NCBI GenBank assembly: GCA_910592005.1
Contig: CAJVPP010003066.1
Coordinates: 1 to 12,686 of the forward strand
Direction of reading: 5' to 3'
DNA length: 12,686 nucleotides
Source: Funneliformis mosseae
Taxonomy: Eukaryota > Glomeromycota > Glomeromycetes > Glomerales > Glomeraceae
The position numbers and the translations under genes are program-made. How positions within the stretch are numbered: the stretch's first letter is position 1; each line of letters opens with the position of its first letter. The notes below the pieces were generated by a model. It did not search any database, was not told the origin of the DNA, and saw nothing but the letters and a program-made list of their open reading frames with translations. Positions 77-12,686 of the stretch are shown piece by piece.

Positions 77-112
77 TTTGTAAGTCTTATGAATTAGTAT
101 AATCTTTGAATA

Positions 113-900
113 ATGGCTAAGTTTCATAATACATATAACAATATTGTAGAAGCCTTAGCTGAAGCAGAAAAATTTACATTATCTCAAAAGAATATATCAT
201 CTTCTATTTCAGTTTTTCTAGTATCCAACCTTTATGTAGAAACTAACAGATCAGTGATGACTAAAAATGAAATTGAGAACTTAGTAAAAAATATAATAGT
301 ATCCTTAAAATTCCAATCTCAACAAGTAACTTTATCGCAATTTCAATCACATCTTGCAGGAATGCATAAAAATTTATAAGATGAAAATATAGGTAGATTT
401 TTATCATGAATTATGAAAGAAATCCCAGAATTTGTTCCTGTCTCTAATCCTACTTTGCCACTAAAGCTAAAGAAAAAGGTTAAAGTTAATTCTAACGAAG
501 AACTTGTTGAGCTTACAAAAAAGTAATTAAAGCTACATGTGGCTGAAGTGATTAAAAAAGCCATAAAGAGTCAATAGCAGTGCTCTAACTGTAACTGAAT
601 TGGACATAATTTTCGCAAATGCACTCAGAAGAAGAAAAAGAAGAACAAGTCTAAAAAAGCTAAAGTTAATTTCACTATTATAGATTTGGGTTCTGATTTA
701 GATTCAGATTCTAACATCTCATCCAGTAATACATTGTCTAGTGATAGTTTTAATTCTGACACAAGTTCTTTCAATTTTGAAGGCGATATCATTGTTAATA
801 TTACCAAGTCAAAAAAAAAGTAAGACATAGTGGGAAAAAGAACTCTTTTAGTAATAAAAGCCCTAAGGCTGTGAAAAAACATGATAGAAGTTTATTTTAA
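113..900 (+). pseudogene. Decayed Gag-like protein with one CCHC zinc knuckle
   Basis: One frame runs from the ATG at 113 to 820 with in-frame stops at 377 (TAA), 407 (TGA), 524 (TAA), 575 (TAG) and 596 (TGA). A one-base shift in the nine-A run at 811-819 then continues to the TAA at 898-900, giving about 262 codons. A zinc knuckle C-X2-C-X4-H-X4-C is read at codons 581, 590, 605 and 620 and is interrupted inside by the TGA at 596, where a polar or Arg residue would be usual. A lysine-rich stretch follows, then a Ser/Asp-rich acidic stretch at about 680-780 and a basic tail. An N-terminal helical region, a CCHC knuckle and a basic tail are typical of Gag nucleocapsids of LTR retrotransposons, which bind the element RNA. 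No reverse transcriptase was found nearby. The 5' half is open for 88 codons. It is a nonfunctional relic; a cellular CCHC protein is possible but less likely. Confidence 0.65.
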
Positions 901-1302
901 TTGGTGAATATTCGTAATCTACATGACGATATTACACTAAATAAAACTAATCAAAAATTCTAAATTTTCATTATATGCATATTAAATAATTAGCTAGATA
1001 TGATACTAATGATACTAAATAGTAACGAAAAGTGTAGCGAAATGCATTATGCATTAAAAAAATGTGTATACATGGTATACATGGTAAATACTAGTAGTAA
1101 ATTTAGTGTATTTGTGTAATAAAATGATTTCATATTTTAGTTTTTATTTAAAAAATCAATCTATATTATACTTTTTAAAGGATAACATGAAAAGTTTAAT
1201 AAAAAAATATATTTTTATTGAAAACTAATTTTAAAAATTTTATAAATAATAATCTGAAAAAATCTTGGCCTTTATTTTATTTATAATTGTCAAATAGAAT
1301 AA
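901..1302. other. AT-rich noncoding stretch with short repeats
   Basis: No convincing coding frame on either strand. It holds a 9-bp direct duplication of TATACATGG at 1067-1084, nested in the palindrome-like GTATACATGGTATAC, and an AATGCATTATGCATT palindrome near 1041-1055. These could be remnants of the left end of the element that follows, but no clear terminal repeat was found. Confidence 0.5.
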
Positions 1303-3843
1303 GATCAATATTGTGAAATTACAAATAATGCATTAAAAAAAGCAAAAGAAAAAGGCATCTTTAATCAACATAATTATTTAGAAGTTGAAAAGCAATTATG
1401 TTATTCTCATTATTTTAATATTATTGAGCCTAATCACAATAAATTACCAGCTAATCATATGCGAAATACTAATATACAAAATAATGTAGTTGTTAATAAT
1501 ATGAGACTATTATCATTGGTAATAAGATTGTGTTAATGACTAAAATATTATATAACAAATAAAGAAAAGAAAATGAAATACTTGAATTAGATCCAAATCA
1601 TTTTCAAATATTGTTTAAAAATGCTGAACTATTATTGAAAGGATTTTTTAATAAGTTATATAATTCATTTATTCCAGAAAGAAGGTCTGCTTATAATAAA
1701 AAAGAGAATAAAAAAGGTAATTAATATATGCTATTCAATGGTAGTGATACGTAATAAATTTGTAAACTATTATCCTTTAGAAATCAGATTCTATCTTGCA
1801 ATGCCAGATGCATCATATGATGCAATCAATATAATGCATAATGCTGACATTTCTATTTATTACAAAACTGTTGAAAACTATAAAAAAAAGATAGCTAATG
1901 CATATCTAGAAAATATTTGAAAGTATTTTACTGAAAAGGTAAGCATTTTAAAATACAATTTTTAATTAGAATTAAACTAATAGTTTTGATCATTAGAATA
2001 ATAGCTTTTTTGTATATAATCTTGATGATTATCATAACATATATGGAATAAAATGCCTTGATACTGTATTTTTCTCAACTGCAGTCTATTTTGCAATATG
2101 TGTTAGCAAAGAAATTTTAAACTGTGTTTTAATTCCAATAAATTATAATGGTAACTCAGTTCATAATTCTACTAATATAAATGCATTCTTAATTTATTAG
2201 CATTTAATTACACAGTATCATGGAGTTTTTGATCTATTATATATACAAAAAAAAATCAGTGGACTATCTCACAAAGTATAGATCTTACTAATTTTAATCA
2301 AGTTAATATATTAACAGTTTATTGTTATGATGATGCTATAAAAGATAATACAAAAGAAAGAAATATAAAAGAAATACAATTAGTTGGAATTAAAGAATCT
2401 CAACTTCATTCATTAAATGATTATCTAAATACATTGGAGATGATTCTTTCAATAAATAAAGATATTGGACACACAAATAATTATGTAATGCCAATCATTA
2501 CTGATTGGTCTAAATAACTTTTCATACGAAAAGCATTAACTTCTCTATATTAACCAAATATAACATCACAAATATCAGCATCTATTGATGCCTTTATATC
2601 TATATTAGTTCCTCTTCATATTTCATTAAATAGTCGGAAGCAAGTTTTAATAATTTATTATTCTTTTTTTAAAAAGCTTTTTCATGCAGTTTTTGGAAGC
2701 CGAAAAATTCTTGCAAAGAAACCAAAACCATGGAGAATCAATCTCCTTCTTGAACTTACTTACCAAGGATGGTTAAAGATAAAAGTAAAGATACTAGAAA
2801 AATTTGGATCTACATGTAAAGATGTAGAATACAGAATGTTAATTGATCTTCTTGATAATGTAATTCTAACAATACTAGACGTATATGCAATTTTTTTTCA
2901 TTCAGGTTCTTTTGATGAATACATTGAACTGTTTTTTTGAATATAGACTTTTGTATTACACTGGAATCATAAAAATTACAACAAGGCCTTTTTAGCATTC
3001 TTGTCAGATATTTATTATTGGTAAGATAAAAAGTATCTAATATTAGATGTAATCAAAATGTTTCTTGTAAATTTCAATGATTTTTTTGTTGAAAACTTAC
3101 ATAGTTAAATATGAGCAAATATATCATCTAGTGATAGTATCGAAGCTATTATTAAACAAACTTATATTTTAGGTATATATAAAATATAATTATGTTTATT
3201 TAAAAATAATATTAACCAAGTTTAAAAATAAATAGATGCAAAATAAGCAATCACTATTTAAAAAAACATTTCATACAAAAAAAAACACCTATATATATCC
3301 TTTATTCTGAAATATTTGATAAATGGAATATCATTATTTTTGCTAGATTATTTTATCAGAAATTCTACCATATTAAATGCATAACTATTAAAACAACCAC
3401 TAGTGATAAAAGGCAAGAAAGAAAGAAAAAAAACAATTCAAAATATAAACTTGTCATTTTAAATGAAGAAATTGATATTATGTGCTTATTAATAAGTTAA
3501 AGTACCAGAGTTCTTTTCTTATCAGAACTTTACGATAATTGCTATAAAAAAATTGGATGATAATAGTGGTAATACTGTATTCATCTGTGATCATAATTTT
3601 CATTGGTATTACTATGATTGAATAGAATATGGATGTCGACACTGTGAACAATATTACAAAAATAAAATAAATAAGAATGTTAATTCATTTTTACAAAGAC
3701 TTGAAAAAGGAACTGATATGTTTTCTGAAAATGATGGATTTGAAGAAGAATCACAAAATTTAGAAGAAGATACAGAAAAGCATGAAAATATTCAAGAAAG
3801 AGATATAAATTTACAAAATGCATTAGAGGATATAAATAAATGA
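1303..3843 (+). pseudogene. Long decayed repeat-family protein, probable transposase, with C-terminal Cys/His zinc motif
   Basis: Adjoining coding segments join into one protein of about 800 residues. They are 1303-1533, about 1560-1725, 1738-1938, then (after a 58-bp intron) 1997-2250, a longest frame of about 2250-3187 (roughly 300 codons with six stops), about 3300-3545 and 3547-3843. Landmarks: NLDDYHNIYGIK after the intron, PLHISLNSRKQV near 2610, and KPKPWRINLLLEL near 2725. A C-terminal cluster (FICDHNFHWY, then YGCRHCEQYY) spaces Cys and His like a RING or treble-clef zinc site, and an acidic tail ends at the TGA 3841-3843. I recall this arrangement from a highly repeated, usually unnamed protein family of arbuscular mycorrhizal fungi, probably a transposase; I cannot place a catalytic triad. 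Breaks include a nine-A frameshift at 2247-2255 and stops at likely Gln (about 2515 and 2551), Arg and Trp (about 2938-2946) and Gln (about 3023). Being coding and repetitive is well supported; the function is inferred. Confidence 0.7.
1939..1996 (+). other. 58-bp GT-AG intron inside the repeat-family gene
   Basis: The upstream frame ends ...TEK at 1938, and GTAAGC follows at 1939. A branch-site-like TAAACTAAT lies at about 1974-1982 and the acceptor CATTAG ends at 1996. The splice is phase 0: removing these bases joins ...TEK directly to NNSFFVYNLDDYH in an open frame, whereas reading through meets a stop at once. The length is typical of fungal introns. The junction is inferred from the frame; no transcript was seen. 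Confidence 0.72.
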
Positions 3844-4154
3844 TAATAAAATAAAAATATCATATAAATACTAAATTTGAATAACTAATATGACGTTTAT
3901 ATTATTTTTATAATTTAAACATAAGTGAATTACCTTTAAATACTTGATCTTACTTGATCTGAAAGTTTTAAGCAGTTTATTAAAGTATGAAGAATACGCT
4001 ATTAAAAAAATTTTCTTTTGTCACATAAAAGTTATATTATATTACTATTACTATTACTTTTATATGAATATACTATATATTGGTCAATCATATTCAATCT
4101 AATCATAAAAATAAAATAGCCAATAAAAATAAATTTCTATCATGCTCTGTGAAA
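3844..4154. other. AT-rich spacer between two elements
   Basis: No coding signal. It contains a tandem 10-bp duplication of ACTTGATCTT at about 3942-3961, differing only in the last base, and a perfect three-copy ATTACT run at 4041-4058. It probably includes the right end of the preceding element, though I cannot define a terminal repeat. Confidence 0.5.
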
Positions 4155-5010
4155 ATGCTATACAAGACAAAACAGAGATTGAAAGCGTTAAAGCATGATC
4201 AGAAAAATAGTAATGCTAATTTTTTTTTAACTAAAGCTGGTTAGAAAACTATTCGCAAAATAGTTCAAAGTGAGCTTAGTTCTACCCTTTGAGAAGAACT
4301 TAAAAAGATCCTCCTTCCGTATATGATTCAAGCCCTTCCGCTAGATACTAAGAAGTCAAATCAGAGAAAAAATATTAAATCTAAAGCCAATAATTTTTTG
4401 TCTTTTTGAGAATCAGCTCCTGCAATACCTGACTCAAATAAAGAGGAGACTTTGGATGATCTGATGAAAATTGATTTTTTTTCAGAAAAGAGAGCTGAAA
4501 ACAAGTATTGTGATAATAAAGTGTAAAATCAAACATTTAAAGATTCTAGCTATGATAGTTTTCTCTAAAGCTGAGCCTCCTATCATAATAGAAAATATCA
4601 TTGAACGCGTAGAAGCTAAAATTAATAAATCTGAAATATATGATCTTAGCAGTATTGCTATTATCTCAGTTAAATCTGTTAGAATTGTCCGCAATTTGCC
4701 TATTACTCTAGCCTTAGGTTATACTATTCATGAAGATTTTATCATAGTGAAATATCACAAGCTGACATTAATATTTTTTAACTAATTTTTAAAGAAATAC
4801 AATTGTATGATAGATTGAAAAACTAATAAGCTAAAGATCCTTCTTAATAGGAAAGACTATATTATTTCCAGTCATCATGCATAAGGTCAAAAATAAGCTC
4901 AAGGTGAACTACGCAAACATTACTCTTAAATGTAATAATCTACCAACTCTGAACAAGATTCTCAGGACTCGCAAGACTTAAACGAAGATAGCATATTAAA
5001 AAAAATATGA
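4155..5010 (+). pseudogene. Decayed Gag-protease (retropepsin-like) remnant of an LTR retrotransposon
   Basis: From the ATG at 4155 a Lys/Gln-rich helical frame runs with stops at 4242 (TAG), 4290 (TGA) and 4407 (TGA). It shifts by one base in the eight-T run at 4475-4482 into the frame that stays open to 4785. There ILAMIVFSKAEPPII fills the place of the retropepsin active site, normally hydrophobic-x-Asp-Ser/Thr-Gly-Ala. The Asp is Phe and the Gly is Lys, so it cannot be an active protease. Downstream (YDLSSIA, NLPITLALG, TIHEDFIIVKYHK) suits the beta-rich body of the domain. The TAA at 4783 and a TGA near 4819 sit at likely Gln and Trp. A further shift near 4868 opens PVIMHKVKNKLKVNYANI, and a Gln/Asp-rich tail ends at 5008-5010. 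In life it would cleave the Gag-Pol polyprotein. I recall close relatives in Rhizophagus; the naming as retropepsin rests on motif position. Confidence 0.6.
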
Positions 5011-5097
5011 GTTATGAAGAGCTCAAAAAATGTTGTATAATGCAAGTCATCTAAAAAGCAAACAGTCTGAATTTTTTTTTGCTGATCACAAACCCGT

Positions 5098-5150
5098 CAC
5101 GTGATCTTTATCCAATTAAAAATCATCACGTGAATTAAAATTGTTACATG
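5098..5150. repeat. Left end of the transposon: two CACGTG palindromes plus ACATG
   Basis: CACGTG occurs at 5098-5103 and 5127-5132, with a degenerate ACATG at 5146-5150. The core TCCAATTAAA between the two palindromes is shared, inverted, with the right end at 7471-7514. Repeated palindromes just inside the ends are typical sites for transposase binding; that role is inferred. Confidence 0.6.
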
Positions 5151-5222
5151 ATTAAATATTAAATCATTAATTTATCGAGTTTTAATTTATTAAATTTTTT
5201 GTATTAAAATAAATGAAATTTA

Positions 5223-7242
5223 TTAATTTATTTTATTTAATTCCTCTAATACATTTTCAGGAATTTTTCTATGTGATTTGTATTTTTTAACAGCATATTC
5301 TGCTAATTTACCTGTAATTCCATACCTATATAAATCTATATATCGTCATGTTTTTCTTGCAAATCTATGAATAGTTGTTAAATCTACAAAATCTAAGGTA
5401 CAAGGAACTATTTTTTATAATCCACTTCAAGTGTAATCATCATTATTTCATATATGTCATTTTGCTGCTTCCTAATAATATTCAATAAAGTTCAATTCAC
5501 AATGAAACTTTGGAAAAAATATACAAACATGACTAGCATTTTTAATTATTTCAACTAATGCAGATTTTTGAGCTAAAAAATCTGGTTGAAGAGATAAAAT
5601 CCGTCTTTCACAGCAATCTACACGTAGAGGATCATCATTTTTATTTTTATATAACTTGCATTCTCCTACCATATTTTTTTTTCACAATCCTCGTTCAATC
5701 AAAACTTGTTTTACACCTTTTGGTCAACCATCAAGAAAATTCATACTTTGTCTTTCATTATTTAGACCCCAAAAGGTATTATGCATTTTAGGTGCATTTC
5801 CACTAGGTCTGATATTTATCCTCTTTACAACCAATGCATCAGAAGCAAATGCAGAATGATTTGAACTATTATCAAAAGCAAATATTCCAATACAATTTTG
5901 AAATAAAGCCTCAAATATAGGAATGGCTTTATATTCAACCTGTTCAATAAGATATTTGGCTGTCCAATATCCTTCATCATTCTTTTCTGGTTTTAAATAT
6001 ACTTGTACTTCTTCTGAAATATCAGAATAATTCTCAATTTGCTCAGCAGTTAGTTTAAGTCTTTCACAAGCTTCAGTTAAAAATTCGCTTACTATAATTA
6101 ATTTTCCATTACCTTTTTTGCATAATGGTAACTTATCTGACTTAGCTCATATTTCATGTTTTTCATCATTTGAGTAGAAAATGCATTCATCATGAATTAT
6201 TAATATATGCTCTTTCTCTTCTGAAGTTAATAAAGAAGCAATTTTTTCCATATTATCTCCTTTATATATTGCTATGTATTTTTCAAGTTCAGCCATTTTT
6301 GATAAAAACACTTTTCGATATTTCACAACATCTTCTCTCTCATGTCTATCATAATATATTCCTTGTTTTTGTTGTTGATAATGATATCCAAGCACATTTA
6401 ACCATTGTCTTATAATACTTATACTAATCACATTTTTATTAATACCTGCTTTTAGTAATAATATATCCTAAACAAACTCCTTAAACTGATGTAGAGTTGT
6501 ATAACTTCCATTTTCTCAAATCTATTTATGACATATTTTAGCAATATCTTCATTATCAATAATTCTACTGATCTTCTGATGTTTTCTCAACGAGATGTAG
6601 GTAGAGTATTGTTAATGCACTAATACTTTGCTGTTTTCTAAACTCAAGTAGCTGTTGATTTACTATTACTATTATATACTATATTTACCACATCTATACT
6701 ACCTTCATTTTTTTTTCTCCTTTTAATAAATGTTTAAGATATTCAAATATAGCCCTTTTTGTAATATACTCTTTTGATAACATTCCATTAAAGTTTTTCT
6801 TTAAATTCTTTTCCAAACTTAAAACCATGTCTTCTGATGGCTAGACAAACATAAAGGTTTCCTCTTTATCTGATAAAATATCTTAAGAACCTTTTTGCAT
6901 TGATTCATCTTGCAGATTAAAAAAGCTTTCTAATTTCTGAGTTTTCTTTGCTACTTCTGTCCACAAGCCGCTAGGTCTCCATTTGTCATAATAAGTTGAT
7001 TTTAGTGTCTTACCCATTTTATAAGGACTGTGTTTTTCTATTTCTAACTTTGCATCTGGTCTCTATTTCAATCCAAAATTCACCTTCAAAAGTCTATCCC
7101 ACATATCTTGTTCTGCTTCCAAATCAGTATCACTTTCCCAATCACTTACCTTATCATTTCCCCAATCATTTTTACTAAAAGTATCATTCAAACCTGTTTC
7201 TAATTGTTCTCCTAATATGTTTCCTTCTGTATCACTCTCAAT
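5223..7242 (-). pseudogene. Decayed DDE transposase, Tc1/mariner-like motifs with a long D-E insert
   Basis: Read on the minus strand from about 7242 to the TAA at 5223-5225. The N-terminal part is acidic and Trp-rich, with YYDKWRPSGLWTEVAKKTQ near 6965, followed by a helical DNA-binding-like region (KHQKISRIIDNEDIAKI near 6570). The catalytic core includes IHDECIFYSND (first Asp 6189-6191), FAFDNSSNHS (second Asp 5871-5873) and FHCELNFIEYY (Glu 5481-5483). The last matches the SPDLNPIE-W box of Tc1/mariner enzymes. Spacing is 105 residues between the Asps and 129 before the Glu, much longer than 34 in Tc1. The last 400 or so codons stay in one frame. Stops at 6147, 5724, 5682, 5472 (TAG), 5427 and 5346 fall at expected Trp, 5457 and 5448 at Arg, and 5415 at Gln, judged against the family from memory. 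Upstream, stops and shifts (including the nine-T run at 6708-6716) are more frequent. It would cut and join element ends in the nucleus, but is now dead. No start codon is visible. Confidence 0.8.
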
Positions 7243-7284
7243 TTTAAAATAAAAATAAATTTATTTAAATAATTCTTATAAATA

Positions 7285-7423
7285 GGTTGAACGATTTATA
7301 AACTTATTTAAGTTCTATAGAAAATTTTCCTATTTTATTCCAGGTTGCGTTTTTAGTGCAGCTTTTCTTTTATTAAGTTAGGACATGCTGGAAAAATTTT
7401 TTAAAAAAAAAGTTCGTTCAACC
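7285..7423. mobile_element. 139-bp miniature inverted-repeat element (MITE) nested in the DNA transposon
   Basis: It begins with GGTTGAACGA and ends with TCGTTCAACC, a perfect 10-bp inverted repeat. Including the TA dinucleotide on each side (7283-7284 and 7424-7425) plus one more base, the match extends to 13 bp. A TA duplication is the target signature of Tc1/mariner-type transposition, so this is probably a nonautonomous relative moved by a transposase encoded elsewhere. It has no coding frame. The ends are unmutated, suggesting insertion more recent than the decay of its host element. Confidence 0.75.
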
Positions 7424-7436
7424 TATAAATTAAAAT

Positions 7437-7458
7437 TCATCATCATCATTATCATCAT
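7437..7458. repeat. TCA trinucleotide microsatellite
   Basis: Seven TCA-type triplets with one interruption lie between the miniature element and the right end of the larger transposon. Simple-sequence expansion; no function is proposed. Confidence 0.7.
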
Positions 7459-7470
7459 ATTACAAATTTT

Positions 7471-7514
7471 CACGTGATCAATTTCATTTAATTGGACAAA
7501 ATTGTTGTCACATG
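7471..7514. repeat. Right end of the transposon: CACGTG and CACATG
   Basis: CACGTG at 7471-7476 and CACATG at 7509-7514 bracket TTTAATTGGAC, the inverted counterpart of the block in the left end at 5098-5132. The CACATG copy differs from the palindrome by one C-to-T change, matching the mutation class seen in the coding frames. Confidence 0.6.
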
Positions 7515-7738
7515 ATAAATCACAAGTCTGAAATTTAAACATTTTATAGGAAAATTACCAATTTTCAAACGCTTAAGGCTCAAAAAATTTCTAATCAATT
7601 AGAGATTTGAAGCCATAACTTTTATTCTCTATTGTCTACATTATTATTATTACAGATTATTTTTTTTATATCATGTAGAACAAAAGTTTTAAGATTTTAA
7701 AGTCATACAATTTTATTTCTATTTATAGATGATTTGTA
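7515..7738. other. AT-rich spacer without a gene
   Basis: No coding signal on either strand. It includes a short ATT triplet run near 7641-7652. It probably contains the join between the insertion site of the transposon and the start of the polymerase-bearing module. Confidence 0.45.
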
Positions 7739-8350
7739 TCATATGATTTTCTTAAGTCTAAAGCAGAACTCAATCACATATGTAAAAGATTGCAGATTCA
7801 TTATAATGAGCTATTAGATAGTAGTCAATAAGTGAGCTATCTCTACTTTACTATTTTCATTTTCCTTAACACCCTTCTCATAAAATATTCTTAATTATTT
7901 TTTATGTAATCTTTTACTCTGAACGTTTTTAGCTGAGTTTTCTGAGGTTAACTTAGTCTAAATGGATCCTAAAAAGTAATGTTAGGTAACTTAGATATAT
8001 GAACAGACTTGACTTTTGAATTCTTTCTTCCAGTCTTTTTTGCCTTATTTTTAGAAATAATGATACTTGAGAACTTTTAGGGGTTTGTCTTTTCTCTATA
8101 GGATAAATCAGCATTTGCTGATACCATCTTTTTAGAATCTGAAGGTAGGTTTATTGGTGGATATAATACAATCTCTTTAGGATCTATTAGGGGTAAACTC
8201 CTCTTTATATTTGATATATCCGCTAAGATAATATTTTATATTTGTTTACCATAACTTCTGATACTCACTTCATTGAATATTAGCATCAATAATGTCCTGA
8301 ATATCTTTTTCTAATAAGTGAGTCACATCTAAATGTAAATAGCAATTCAT
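7739..8350 (-). pseudogene. Decayed small basic protein of the polymerase-bearing element, unknown function
   Basis: Reading starts at the ATG 8350-8348 (MNCYLHLDVTHLLEKD...). After about 27 codons it meets a TGA, then shifts by one base into SIRSYGKQI, a TAA, and NIILADISNIKRS. It continues through LIDPKEIVLYPPINLPSDSK and a Lys-rich stretch (SKNKAKKTGRKNSKVK) that could be a nuclear targeting or nucleic-acid-binding segment. Stops at likely Gln codons follow (NP*KFSS, ITF*DPF, LS*PQK), then a shift near 7860 and an end at about 7739. I do not recognise a domain. It is head-to-head with the coiled-coil gene across a 297-bp gap containing a repeat array, so the two probably shared control signals. 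That this is coding is supported by the coherent composition on both sides of the shifts. Confidence 0.55.
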
Positions 8351-8382
8351 TTTTTCTTATAATCAGAAAAAATCTATCAATA

Positions 8383-8590
8383 AATATTCGATATACATTC
8401 TATATATATATTTAATATATATTTGGTATACATTTGATACATCTGATATTTATCTAGTATGTTTAGTGCATTCAATGTATTCAGTACATTCGGTATGTTT
8501 GATGCATTTAAAATATATCTGATATATATCCAATACATATAGTACATTCAGTATATCTGATATATTCAGTAGATTCAATATATATTCAGT
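8383..8590. repeat. Array of degenerate 9-bp units
   Basis: The stretch parses into units near RRTRYATYY: for example AGTGCATTC, AATGTATTC, AGTACATTC, GGTATGTTT and GATGCATTT in a row from about 8465. Some units are lengthened by two bases (GATATATATCC). About 18 or more units are visible. The fixed alternation of purine, T, pyrimidine-A-T and pyrimidine pairs keeps the period in spite of base changes. It resembles iteron-type or transcription-factor repeat arrays. A second array of the same period lies at 12052-12150. Confidence 0.7.
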
Positions 8591-8618
8591 TCAGAAATTT
8601 CAATTGTATTTTTTCTAT

Positions 8619-8632
8619 TATAGTAGCAGTCA
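8619..8632 (+). repeat. 14-bp shared motif TATAGTAGCAGTCA, copy 1
   Basis: The exact 14-mer recurs in the same orientation at 12151-12164, each time just downstream of a 9-bp array. Here it lies immediately before the ATG at 8648, which suggests a conserved core promoter or 5' leader sequence of the element's genes. Confidence 0.6.
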
Positions 8633-8647
8633 AGTCAAAAAAAAGCC

Positions 8648-9676
8648 ATGAATAATGTATATACCTTGAGAGATGTTAATAAAAAAAATGATATCTTAAC
8701 TGTGACTGGACGTCAGCTTGGTACTGCATATGGGTATGAACTTAAAGAGAAGTTATATTCTGCTTTCAGCTCTAAGGCTGAACTTAGAGATCTTAATGGA
8801 AAGTTAATAGATAAGTACAATGAGCAGGAAAAGGAGTATCAGTAAAGCTATAGTGATATTGAAAATAAGATTAGCCAGTTAAATGCATTTATTACTAAAG
8901 TTAGATTTCAACTTATTTCTAAATGGAAGTCTTATTCTAAGAGTCAATGTGAGCTTAAAGCTAAATATACAACTAAAATCCAATCGCTCAAATTAAAGAT
9001 TAAAACACTGAAGAGAGAGGGAATTTTAGCCTAAAAAGCTTCATCTATTGACAAGATCAAGATTCTCTCTTTTGAAGCTAAAATACATAAATTAGAAGGT
9101 AAGTTGAAGAATATAGATCTAGAGTATACATATCATGATTTGGAACTAGAATAAGTGTTTCATTATTCAGATACAATAGAAGGACTTTTAGAAAAGCTGA
9201 TTCAAATAAATTCATTTGATCCTAAAGAGATCGATTCTCTCAGGCTTAAATTAAAATGAGCAAATGAGGATCTTAGTTCAAAAGAATATATAATAGAATG
9301 TATAGAAAAAGGAACAGAGGTATTAAACATCATATATAAATGGAAGTTAGACTCCTTATCTTCAATACGATTAAATTTACTGGAGAAAAATGCTTATTTT
9401 CAAGAATTACTATCGAAGAAAGAGCCAAGAGACGCTTTGCATAATGAAGTAGATCCTTCACTTCCACCTATGAATAATTTATCGCAACATAATCCTGAAG
9501 AAATTCTTTTAATTCTTAATCCTTTATCCTAAATAATAGGTAACGCAAAAGTGATATCTTTATCAGCAACTGCTCCTATCATTGCAAGCTTCTTGATGTC
9601 ACTGATAATAATATATTCTATACTTAATTTACTACTAATTGTAATTATATGGATTGTAGTCAGAAAAAAGCTATAG
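8648..9676 (+). pseudogene. Coiled-coil protein with C-terminal membrane segment, broken by five stops
   Basis: A single frame of 342 codons runs from the ATG at 8648 to the TAG at 9674-9676 with no frameshift. In-frame stops are at 8843 (TAA), 9032 (TAA), 9152 (TAA), 9257 (TGA) and 9530 (TAA); each is one C-to-T change from Gln or Arg (TGA also from Trp). Residues from about 45 to 265 are rich in Lys, Glu, Leu and Ile with heptad-like spacing (coiled coil). A proline-containing linker (DPSLPPMNNLSQ) follows. Residues about 303-337 are strongly hydrophobic and followed by RKKL, which looks like a tail anchor or fusion-type membrane segment. The frame may originally have read through the TAGs at 9674, 9707 and 9728, all potential Gln. 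I do not recognise a named family. It is divergent from the small basic gene and convergent with the polymerase, so it is probably an accessory or structural protein of the same element. Expression as drawn would stop after 65 residues. Confidence 0.7.
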
Positions 9677-9808
9677 AATATATGGAAAAAAAGTAACCAA
9701 TATATTTAGACTAGTGATTTACATCTCTAGGTATATCTGAGGCTGGGTTATATGATCAGAGGTTAGAAGAAATCTATCACATAACCAGATTGAATATAGA
9801 AATTGAAG

Positions 9809-11787
9809 TTAGTCAGTATTATTGCACAAGAAAAAATATATAAATAATATTATATAAAGTATCTTACAAATAAATTTTCTTAGCTGAAATTGCCAGATCT
9901 TGTTAAGAGTACTTAATAATATATCTACTTCAGATGAATCATCAAAATATCTAAAAATTTATTATAAACCTTTTATATATTTTTTAAGCCAGTTTTTTGT
10001 TTTTCTCTGGAAATAATCATTGATCTTCTTTTTCTTTTTATCAGAATTCTTAATCTGCATTATTTTATCTGATGGCGATAGTTAAAATCTGTCATCTTTA
10101 TTAATGAAGCGTATGCACATTTCTATTGTTTGTTCTAAATAGTAGCTAATATTTATCTTTATATTAAACTCTTCTGTTTTATAAAGATTTTATTGCATGT
10201 GAGACCTCCTTTAGCCTTTCATTTAAACATTGCAACAAACTGATTAAAATCCCACTGCCTAAATCTAGTATCTCAGAGAACATTTTTAACAATTTTTTGA
10301 ATTGGACGTATTTTATTGATACTTATAGCCTTCTACATAATCTTTTCTCCGATAAACCTAAAGAGCTCAGAATTCTCTTGCTTTACAATATTAATTTCTT
10401 TTTTAAAGAGATTATCTGGTCTAAAATTTAATTCATCTTCATACCAAATTCTAAAGTACTTTTTTTGCCAGTAAAGCAGATGGGAAATAATACCTTTTCA
10501 TATGCCATCTTTAGATAAGAGGTTCCATTTTTTATCCTAAGATAGGCATTTATTTGATCGCGCAATTTTTTCATTACATTCATAGTAATTTTGACCATTT
10601 TAGTCCAGTATACTTTCTTAGAAAGTTCTTTTCTGAAGAAGGCTTCATCACATTTTCTGAAATAATTTTCTAGGCAGGTGAGATATAAAGAATCAGTATT
10701 ACCATATTTTATTCTAAACTCTTTCTTTATTATGAATTCTGAGACAAGATTAAGATTGTATTTTCTTGCTAAAGTAGTTTCTTAAGCTAATTTATAAAGA
10801 AAGATAGGAGATTTAGAGTTTCTAACTTCTCCATAAAAAGTGTTCATGTATACCATTAAAGCTCTTTACTTCAAATCAGAATAATCATAATCGAAGCATA
10901 TAAATGAATATTCTGAATTTAAGCTTTTCAGAATCTTTTTGTCTTTTTATTTAACTAAACTTATTATCTTCTCAAGGTGTAGCTTTTTCTTTTCTAGTGT
11001 GACAAGTTGTGTTTTAAGTTTTATTCTCTTGTTGAAAAATCTTCTAATACAATAGGATATAAGCCTTTCTTTTCAAAATAATTATCATATCTTACATTTC
11101 AAGCTTAGATGATATGGTTATTAAATGGAAACTCAATCTTATGTAAAATGTTTCCATTTTTTTCTGCAATATTAGCCTCTTTATATGTTAATATTATTTT
11201 ATCTAGAGAGAGATTATAAGCCATGATAAGATTAAATATAATAAGGCGAAATTCAATCCCGTTATAGATCTTCTTATTTCAATCCCCTTTTTAGATGAAA
11301 AAACATAGGTACCGGAATATTTCCCTTTTCTAAATCTTTAAAATCCTTATACTAAATACTATATCTCATTTAACAGCATATGCACTGAGGAAGTTTCGTA
11401 CCTTTATTCTATTTGCGCGATAATATAAGTCAAACAAAGATATATAAGAGATAGAAGCAATTTCTCTATAATCATTGATTATATATAGCTTTACTATAAG
11501 CTCTTAATAACGTAATGTGTCTATAATACAATAATTAGCTATTTTATGCATTTTTTTGTAGTTGATAGGGAAAGGTCTTTTTTCACCTCTAAATAGATTC
11601 TTCATATTTCATTATATAGCATATCTGCTTTAGCATTATTAACGTGTAATTCTTACGAACTATGACTATTAGACGGGGTATTCAAGTAATTTATTCTTTT
11701 TAATTGAGTAGTAATCTTTCAACGATTAATGAGTTTTATATCAGGTTGATTCTCAAAAGTGTTTGTACTATTATGATGAACAGTATT
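9809..11787 (-). pseudogene. Decayed family B DNA polymerase of a selfish or virus-like element
   Basis: Read on the minus strand from about 11787. An Exo III-like block (IANYCIIDTLRY, Asp at 11519-11521) is followed by a linker with [17 protein letters not shown]. Motif A reads GLNFALLY (11236-11259) where GLDFASLYPS is expected, so its metal-binding Asp has become Asn. KKGLYPIVLEDLFNKRIKL lies near 11060. Motif B is YMNTFYG (from 10850), motif C is KYGNTDSLYL (10680-10709) with YGDTDS changed to YGNTDS, and the KKKYF motif and RFIGEKIM follow at about 10460 and 10340. A C-terminal part with a Lys-rich segment (INDYFQRKTKNWLKKY) ends at 9809-9811. About 660 codons remain; the N-terminal exonuclease start is missing. 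Stops are at Gln, Arg or Trp positions, and shifts include the seven-T run at 10460-10466. The order of motifs A-B-C and the motif B context identify family B. It resembles polymerases of Polinton/Maverick, linear-plasmid and large DNA virus type; which one is open. It would copy the element's own DNA. Confidence 0.85.
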
Positions 11788-11838
11788 TTAATAGATTACC
11801 AATGATTTATAATTGTAAAATAATGTGTTTATTCACAA

Positions 11839-11905
11839 GTAAAATAATAAAAGTAAAAGAAATAAAAGAAACTAAGAAAATAGTATAAAGAAAAGAAAAG
11901 AAACG
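11839..11905. other. Polypurine tract
   Basis: The plus strand is almost all A and G with a recurring AAAG/AAAAGA pattern; the minus strand is correspondingly pyrimidine-rich. It lies upstream of the polymerase frame, between it and the 9-bp array. It may be untranslated leader or decayed N-terminal sequence. From here to 12051 I see no gene. Confidence 0.4.
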
Positions 11906-12051
11906 AATTATTGAAGCAAAAATATAATGCGATAGGCCAGTTGCCTCTAAACCACTAAAACTAACTTGTCAAGTTCCTATCTATTTGTCTTTTTACATAA
12001 ACTAAAAAGCTATCTATTTATATAAAATAAATTACATAGAGAGATATAACT

Positions 12052-12150
12052 AATATGTTTACTATATCAACTATGTCTAATATATTAACTATATCTAATA
12101 TATCAACTATGTTTAATATGTCAATTATGTTATATATATCTGACATATTA
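12052..12150. repeat. Eleven uninterrupted 9-bp units
   Basis: The 99 bases divide exactly into 11 units of 9 bp: AATATGTTT, ACTATATCA, ACTATGTCT, AATATATTA, ACTATATCT, AATATATCA, ACTATGTTT, AATATGTCA, ATTATGTTA, TATATATCT, GACATATTA. The consensus is close to AMTATRTYW. The last unit abuts the shared 14-mer at 12151. It is upstream of the polymerase frame (minus strand), or of whatever once lay to the right. The same period as the array at 8383-8590 indicates a common element structure. Confidence 0.8.
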
Positions 12151-12164
12151 TATAGTAGCAGTCA
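12151..12164 (+). repeat. 14-bp shared motif TATAGTAGCAGTCA, copy 2
   Basis: It is identical to 8619-8632 and in the same orientation, directly joined to the 9-bp array. No start codon or gene follows here; within about 90 bases the sequence passes into a Tc1 element, which may have replaced the downstream gene. Confidence 0.65.
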
Positions 12165-12254
12165 TAAGTATCTGACCGCCTTTAATACTGGCTACAAGTA
12201 AGTAAATTCAAAATTTTTATTTTATTTAAAAAATACATAACTAACTAACTAAAA

Positions 12255-12686
12255 TTAATACATTATGTAGTCACTATTTGACTCTATAAGTGCAGCTGTA
12301 CGCCTTTTCATGCTAGCTACTAAATTCGCAGTAAGTACAGGTGATAATCAATTCCATTCTTTTGTAAGTTCTCCTTTTAATCCTCTAATTGATCGAATTT
12401 TTTTTTTGTGTATTAATTTTCATTAACCTCTAAATATTTTCTATAGGGTTTTAGTCTAGAGATATTAATGACTAAGAAAGTATCTCAATGCCATTTTCTT
12501 CCTTCTATTTTTTCACGATTTTTAATCGATACTTTGGATCATTATCTTCTTGCAAGATCCAATCTATGTTACCTTCACTAAAAAGTTTAAAGGTGGAAGC
12601 CAGAAGACTCTTCTCATAAATAGTACACATAAATTCAGCATTAAGGTTCCTCTGAAAGCAAAATAGCTTACCAAATCCAGAAGCAG
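12255..12686 (-). pseudogene. Tc1-family transposase, C-terminal part, runs off the window
   Basis: On the minus strand, entering at 12686, the frame reads WILQEDNDPKYRLKIVKK, then KEENGIEIL, then NPIENI followed by a TAG at 12430-12432. These are the second and third catalytic boxes of Tc1: Asp at 12544-12546 and Glu at 12439-12441, with exactly 34 residues between them (DD34E). Stops at 12505, 12472 and 12430 (all TAG) fall where Trp is conserved, and the TAA at 12451 is one change from Gln. A one-base shift in the ten-T run at 12398-12407 leads into RGLKGELTKEWN, and the C-terminus NLVASMKRRTAALIES ends at the TAA 12255-12257. The N-terminal DNA-binding region and first Asp lie outside the window. 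The enzyme would cut at TA targets; this copy is dead. Confidence 0.88.

What the first reader, a model, noticed from the sequence alone, without database searches (positions are those of the whole stretch)
7739..12164. Multigene module built round a family B DNA polymerase, likely a relic of a self-replicating DNA element
Three decayed frames are compactly arranged: a basic protein (minus), a coiled-coil membrane-tailed protein (plus) and a family B polymerase (minus). They are accompanied by two 9-bp arrays and a shared 14-mer. A replicative polymerase plus accessory genes, with no transposase or reverse transcriptase inside, points to a Polinton-like, linear-plasmid-like or fungal virus-like element integrated in the nucleus. 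The combination with iteron-like arrays is not one I can match to a described system.
Basis: partly seen in the sequence, partly recalled or inferred. Interest (0 to 1): 0.8.

Follow-up and report, generated by a model that had tools for sequence, protein, structure and literature searches.

The report
Decayed Gag-carrying Polinton-like DNA element
The window holds the decayed half of a large virus-like mobile DNA element, repeated many times in a mycorrhizal fungus, that combines a giant-virus-type DNA polymerase with a retrovirus-type shell protein, an integrase and a DNA-packaging motor, a mixture I could not match to a described element.

Summary
The three decayed frames belong to one repeated element in an arbuscular mycorrhizal fungus genome. 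It reaches left to at least base 110 (decayed Gag and aspartic-protease-like genes, split by two apparent insertions) and stops right at about 11,637, where a high-copy repeat cuts off the polymerase; the right-hand array and 14-mer belong to other repeats. Better copies carry, in fixed order, family B polymerase, coiled-coil/membrane protein, HTH-like protein, protease, Gag, retroviral-type integrase and A32-type packaging ATPase. Polymerase and protease share a contig 43 times (1.3 expected), 43 of 43 with one geometry; polymerase, protease and ATPase 22 times, 22 of 22 collinear. The polymerase is of asfarvirus type, neither protein-primed nor close to Pol delta. The Gag model resembles retroviral, Arc and PEG10 capsid domains. 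The Polinton-like guess is thus right in kind, but the polymerase test for a Polinton is not met, and no jelly-roll capsid or terminal inverted repeat was found. The element offers another reading of the scattered asfarvirus-like polB genes reported in these fungi. One terminus, the mechanism and any particle remain unproven.

The parts
110..379 (+). Gag remnant, region between capsid domain and zinc knuckle (decayed)
   Evidence: open stretch; tblastn of the C1069 Gag piece to window 137-616, 35% identity, E 4.7e-19
536..820 (+). Gag remnant, C-terminal part with CCHC zinc knuckle (one stop in the knuckle)
   Evidence: tblastn of the C1881 Gag: residues 348-443, 52% identity, E 1.8e-11
850..4130 (.). 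Not part of the element: apparent insertion between Gag and protease (about 3.3 kb, ends not resolved, type unknown)
   Evidence: in C1881 Gag and protease ORFs lie about 110 bp apart; Pfam finds no family in the one piece of it scanned, 2554-2940
4245..5004 (+). Retropepsin-like aspartic protease and the Gag-protease linker (decayed)
   Evidence: C1881 protease matches 4471-5004, 55% identity, E 8.3e-51; R. irregularis Gag-protease P0241 matches 4245-5004, E 1.2e-33; same place in C818, C2172
5045..7740 (.). Not part of the element: apparent insertion of a transposon (minus-strand transposase-like frame is my reading; ends not resolved)
   Evidence: in C818 and C2172 the sequences matching window 5030 and about 7742-7766 lie next to each other; Pfam names no family
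7740..8360 (-). Basic frame in the place of a small HTH-like gene (decayed)
   Evidence: 12 matches in the genome, five of them 81-83% identical over the whole stretch; intact-gene homology not shown
8398..8590 (.). AT-rich repeat array between the divergent basic and coiled-coil genes
   Evidence: repeats; region 8380-8720 conserved at 78-80% in 5 of 5 relatives compared
8648..9700 (+). Coiled-coil protein with C-terminal membrane stretch (decayed)
   Evidence: 47 DNA matches; coiled-coil ORF of C1789 matches 8744-9613, 47% identity, E 2e-63
9880..11637 (-). C-terminal half of an asfarvirus-type family B DNA polymerase; motif C reads YGNTDS where C1881 has YGDTDS; N-terminal part missing
   Evidence: 70 DNA matches; C1881 polymerase matches 10234-11557; exonuclease and N-terminal pieces give no match in the window
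11638..12150 (.). Not part of the element: high-copy repeat, with the right-hand 9-bp array, that cuts off the polymerase
   Evidence: 405 first-look candidates, 40 scored, most matching 1-509 of 511
12151..12686 (-). Not part of the element: another repeat (Tc1-type by my reading) whose end includes the right copy of the 14-mer
   Evidence: end stretch 12140-12230 has 303 first-look candidates, 40 scored

Best explanation
The window is a decayed, truncated copy of a large self-synthesizing DNA element of the Polinton-like kind in the genome of an arbuscular mycorrhizal fungus. Better copies are at least 14-16 kb long and carry in fixed order: asfarvirus-type family B polymerase (+), coiled-coil/TM protein (-), HTH-like protein (+), retropepsin-like protease (-), Gag with capsid domain and CCHC knuckle (-), retroviral-type integrase with a nuclease-like tail (+), A32-type packaging ATPase (+), and at least one further gene (-). 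Inferred cycle: the polymerase copies the element's DNA; Gag forms a shell or nucleoprotein that the protease matures; the ATPase moves the DNA into it; the integrase inserts the copy elsewhere. Shown: gene content, fixed order, copy number, past selection on several of the proteins, one sharp end. Inferred: every step of the cycle.
Confidence: 0.85

Rival explanations
1. Remains of repeated infections by asfarvirus-like giant viruses (endogenous viral fragments), with retrotransposon genes beside the polymerase by later insertion. This is how the scattered polB copies of R. irregularis were read in print (PMC10640383, passages).
For: The polymerase is of asfarvirus type (passages of PMC5294986, PMC10640383, PMC12455990); the ATPase is A32-like, as in giant viruses.
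Against: One fixed neighbourhood in 43 of 43 contigs with Gag in 36 of 36; a sharp common end; integrase of its own. No giant-virus RNA polymerase or capping gene was named among the Pfam-scanned ORFs of C1881, though this is a small sample.
Confidence: 0.06
2. The element is as described, but Gag and protease are passengers or serve as a nucleoprotein; the element makes no particle, or its shell is a capsid gene that I did not reach.
For: The ATPase-side end was not found and at least one unnamed gene lies there; no codon-position excess for Gag in the one pair compared.
Against: Gag recurs about 4 kb from the ATPase in three gene orders; Gag and protease stay together next to PolB; protease shows codon-position excess.
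Confidence: 0.4
3. Chance pile-up of unrelated repeats in a repeat-rich genome.
For: The window does contain a pile-up: two apparent insertions inside and two other repeats at the right edge.
Against: Co-occurrence far above expectation with one geometry, across polymerase copies 26-81% identical to the query.
Confidence: 0.02

Closest known systems
Polinton/Maverick self-synthesizing DNA transposons (polintoviruses)
   Same: Size class, multigene content, own family B polymerase, rve integrase, A32-like packaging ATPase, a protease
   Different: Polymerase of asfarvirus type instead of protein-primed; retropepsin-like instead of adenovirus-like cysteine protease; Gag where Polintons have jelly-roll capsids (none found here); no TIR found
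Asfarviridae and endogenous asfarvirus-like regions of Rhizophagus (PMC10640383)
   Same: Type of DNA polymerase; A32-like ATPase
   Different: Small repeated element with integrase and Gag-protease, not a long viral region
Ty3/gypsy-type retrotransposons
   Same: Gag with CCHC knuckle, aspartic protease, rve integrase
   Different: No reverse transcriptase after the protease (119 bp to the next, opposite gene in C1881); DNA polymerase and packaging ATPase instead
Fungal linear plasmids with protein-primed polymerase
   Same: Family B polymerase in a selfish fungal element
   Different: Their polymerases are protein-primed (passage of PMC11071308); this one is not

Membership tests
Polinton/Maverick | Protein-primed family B polymerase | tested here: not met
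   PolB is PF00136, best PDB chain 8ywg_A, 245 bits; PF03175 has 2 matches in the genome, on contigs C2643 and C2982 without the element's genes in my lists
Polinton/Maverick | rve-type integrase | tested here: met
   C1881 copy 33.1 bits over cut-off 32.6; C3436 piece 32.3, just under; not in the window
Polinton/Maverick | A32/FtsK-HerA-like packaging ATPase | tested here: met
   PF04665 over cut-off in relatives P0125 and P0189, just under in C1881; not in the window
Polinton/Maverick | Adenovirus-like cysteine protease | tested here: inconclusive
   none named among scanned ORFs; retropepsin-like protease present; one end not reached
Polinton/Maverick | Double jelly-roll major capsid protein | tested here: inconclusive
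   none named by Pfam among scanned ORFs; ATPase-side end not reached
Polinton/Maverick | Terminal inverted repeats and target-site duplication | tested here: inconclusive
   no TIR by BLAST in C493 or C1881; only one end located
Asfarviridae (endogenous) | Asfarvirus-type DNA polymerase | tested here: met
   with published placement (passages); that 8ywg is the African swine fever virus enzyme is recalled
Asfarviridae (endogenous) | Polymerase among other giant-virus core genes | tested here: inconclusive
   only an A32-like ATPase seen near it in the copies scanned
Ty3/gypsy retrotransposon | Gag capsid domain with CCHC knuckle | tested here: met
   PF03732 in 13 of 19, zf-CCHC in 4 of 19 relatives; capsid-like model
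Ty3/gypsy retrotransposon | Reverse transcriptase following the protease | tested here: not met
   in C1881 the next gene starts 119 bp away on the other strand; no RT named in the Pfam scans
Ty3/gypsy retrotransposon | Long terminal repeats | not tested
   no dedicated search around the Gag genes

The most novel reading that the evidence does not exclude
AM fungi harbour a lineage of double-stranded DNA viruses or virus-like transposons whose particle is built from a retrovirus-type Gag and filled by an A32-type DNA-packaging motor: Gag has taken the place of the jelly-roll capsid, a retropepsin that of the cysteine protease, and an asfarvirus-type polymerase that of the protein-primed one. 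In this genome Gag lies mostly about 4 kb from the ATPase in three gene orders: 34 contigs in the main order, 7 convergent and 6 same-strand without this PolB, as expected if shell and motor work together.
Probability: 0.45. Interest if true: 0.92.

Novelty: new variant of a known kind. Interest (0 to 1): 0.8.

Why it matters
From general knowledge, eukaryotic DNA viruses with A32-type packaging ATPases use jelly-roll capsids, and Gag shells carry RNA. An element that joins Gag and a retropepsin to a DNA polymerase and a DNA-packaging ATPase would break that link, and could explain why no capsid gene was found in the Polinton of Rhizophagus (passage of PMC7805220). It also offers another reading of the 15-33 polB copies per R. 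irregularis genome outside the 1.5-Mb viral region (passage of PMC10640383): copies of mobile elements rather than separate giant-virus infections. Both claims can be tested in existing chromosome-level assemblies.

Tried and rejected
Right-hand array, 14-mer and an 81-bp inverted match to C818 as ends of the element: rejected, they lie in other high-copy repeats. TIR search between the two sides of C493 and within C1881: no pair. An apparent ATPase-side end at L053 5265-5304 was withdrawn because other copies continue past it. IMG/VR: no relative with one polymerase sequence, one distant contig (28%) with an alignment, not pursued. Protease model: mean pLDDT 37, not used. PDB sequence search with the Gag alignment gave no good hit (best lipovitellin 0.0083; Gag nucleocapsids 0.58 and 0.62), with the integrase none, with the ATPase only weak hits to unrelated proteins. 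HTH-like, Tc1-type, transposase-like, coiled-coil/TM and nuclease-like are my readings of the translations; no tool named them as such in the window. Paper search for 8YWG gave one unrelated paper. Polinton + gag + capsid + retropepsin found no paper; Polinton + gag + packaging ATPase + retrotransposon + fungi found 8, of which I read passages of PMC6431247 only. Gong 2020 (veaa008) is not held and was not read. Repbase and subscription papers were not searched; the 'Maverick' repeats listed for R. irregularis (passages of PMC8647823 and PMC11075540) may include this element.

Full report
What the window is. The window is the whole contig C3066 of an 82-Mb genome in 4154 contigs. Named protein relatives come from arbuscular mycorrhizal fungi (Rhizophagus, Funneliformis, Diversispora, Gigaspora, Cetraspora, Glomus and others), so the host is very likely one; the genome itself is unnamed.

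Observation. The coiled-coil and polymerase frames are real, decayed and repeated: 47 DNA matches for the coiled-coil region and 70 for the polymerase region (lower bounds). The basic frame has 12 matches. The three lie together in the same order on C497, C476 and C2562 as well. The stated right edge is not the element's edge: polymerase homology stops at about 11637; 11640-12150 is another repeat (405 first-look candidates) and what follows 12151 another still (303). A 14-mer pair like the one reported is met in 24% of simulated sequences.

Extension to the left. Window 4438-5039 recurs upstream of the same genes in C818 and C2172, and part of it in C59; the C1881 protease matches 4471-5004 at 55% identity. 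Window 137-616 and 536-820 match the Gag of other copies (E 4.7e-19; E 1.8e-11). Two apparent insertions split this part, about 850-4130 and within 5045-7740; in C818 and C2172 the sequences on either side of the second are adjacent.

Better preserved copies. C1881 (L051, L053) reads: PolB in pieces from 1248 to 5235 with one open piece of 583 aa, coiled-coil/TM ORF, HTH-like ORF, protease ORF with an LDSGAE motif, Gag ORF of 443 aa with CCHC knuckle, coiled-coil ORF, integrase, nuclease-like ORF, ATPase with a GRTNTGKS loop, a further coiled-coil ORF and another ORF. Pfam: DNA_pol_B 7e-44, exonuclease 2.8e-12, zf-CCHC 0.0034, rve 6.9e-8, Pox_A32 8e-5, Retrotrans_gag 0.0023; the last three names apart from rve are below their curated cut-offs in C1881 (Pox_A32 by 0.1 bit), as is zf-CCHC. 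C1789 shares the layout where compared. In C493 the shared sequence runs from about 12,310 to 28,355, 16 kb.

Counts. From I copied the best row per contig; for the protease only rows at about E 1e-11 or better (71 contigs; weaker rows were dropped, among them real pieces such as C2126, C555 and C4136 and many 24-40% matches that I take for retrotransposon proteases). PolB 77 contigs, ATPase 112. PolB and protease share 43 contigs (1.3 expected), protease and ATPase 33 (1.9), PolB and ATPase 24 (2.1), all three 22; order and orientation agree in 43 of 43, 33 of 33 and 22 of 22. The expectation treats contigs as alike. Of 77 Gag contigs, 36 hold PolB, 36 of 36 with one geometry; 47 hold the ATPase, 34 in the main order and 13 in two other orders (7 convergent, 6 same strand), none of the 13 with this PolB; 17 hold neither. 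Most Gag-ATPase distances are 3.5-6.5 kb; C3269, C3419 and one row of C497 are wider.

Polymerase. A 362-aa open piece from C2750 gives 245 bits with PDB 8ywg_A (1206 aa) over residues 2-359, 47 bits with Pyrococcus polymerase and 23 bits with Pol delta. I recall 8ywg as the African swine fever virus polymerase; the output says only 'DNA polymerase'. Published trees place R. irregularis polB with Asfarviridae (passages of PMC5294986, PMC10640383, PMC12455990). Protein-primed PolB (PF03175) has 2 matches in this genome, on other contigs; the 14 control genomes had none.

Selection and decay. In diverged pairs the third codon position differs most: PolB C1881/C1789 0.136, 0.130, 0.302 (p 1.8e-13); integrase p 4.5e-7 (C3436); ATPase p 8e-6 and 8.5e-4; protease p 1e-9, 1e-10 and 0.012; ORF past the ATPase p 6e-5 and 0.009. 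There is no significant excess in the closest pairs (PolB C493 0.47, ATPase 0.86 and 0.53, integrase 0.39) nor for Gag (0.11), coiled-coil (0.10) and HTH-like gene (0.33, 0.28). The close pair C1881/C493 differs in PolB by transitions in 69 of 70 cases; 25 of 69 are in CpG context, so CpG alone does not account for them. CpG observed/expected is 0.36 in window 7740-11637 and 0.83 in the C1881 PolB ORF. I read this as decay by C-to-T change after insertion.

Terminus. On the PolB side 19 main matches stop within 400-410 of the query, after 18-bp repeats and a 48-bp palindrome; a few run on (C322 to 413, C274 to 442). On the other side homology runs at least to L053 5719. No TIR was found.

Literature. 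PMC10640383 (abstract and passages) reports 15-33 polB copies per R. irregularis genome outside the 1.5-Mb viral region and takes them as a sign of widespread infection. PMC7805220 (passage) says no capsid gene was found in the Polinton of Glomus intraradices/R. irregularis; PMC4409740 (passage) has R. irregularis in a tree of protein-primed polymerases. PMC8647823 and PMC11075540 (passages) list 'Maverick' repeats without gene content in what I saw. In the listings and passages from my searches I saw no description of an element with this gene set; most listed papers were not opened.

Judgement. A decayed copy of a Polinton-like element with an asfarvirus-type polymerase and a Gag-protease pair (0.85). 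That it works like a Polinton is inference; by the polymerase test it is not one. That Gag packages the DNA is the boldest reading left open (0.45).

Noticed in passing
G000 contigs C1613, C1621, C1636, C1720, C1755, C3543, C3906 (convergent) and C1214, C1406, C2566, C356, C4058, C897 (same strand): Gag and A32-type ATPase lie about 4 kb apart in two further gene orders without the asfarvirus-type PolB: apparently other families of Gag-ATPase elements.
   Followed up: partly
L066 4300-4555, L041 1560-1751: The PolB-side end carries 18-bp iterated repeats and a terminal palindrome of about 48 bp; the end region has 214 first-look candidates, more than PolB has, so end-only copies may exist.
   Followed up: partly
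window 7740-11637; L051; L066: CpG depletion in the window and almost only transitions between close copies point to C-to-T decay of silenced copies.
   Followed up: partly
window 11638-12150: A repeat of about 510 bp with hundreds of candidates, perhaps a solo LTR; not classified.
   Followed up: no
window 850-4130; L040 4250-6509: Decayed frames of another multi-gene repeat (apparent insertion); similar-looking frames lie beside the PolB copy on C52.
   Followed up: no
L041 4156-5001: An open 282-aa ORF that reads like a fungal MATA-type HMG-box protein (recalled, not searched), about 2.4 kb past the element's PolB-side end on C818.
   Followed up: no
L059 2337-3518: The integrase C-terminus is fused in frame to a treble-clef/nuclease-like tail (DUF4379 E 0.032).
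   Followed up: no
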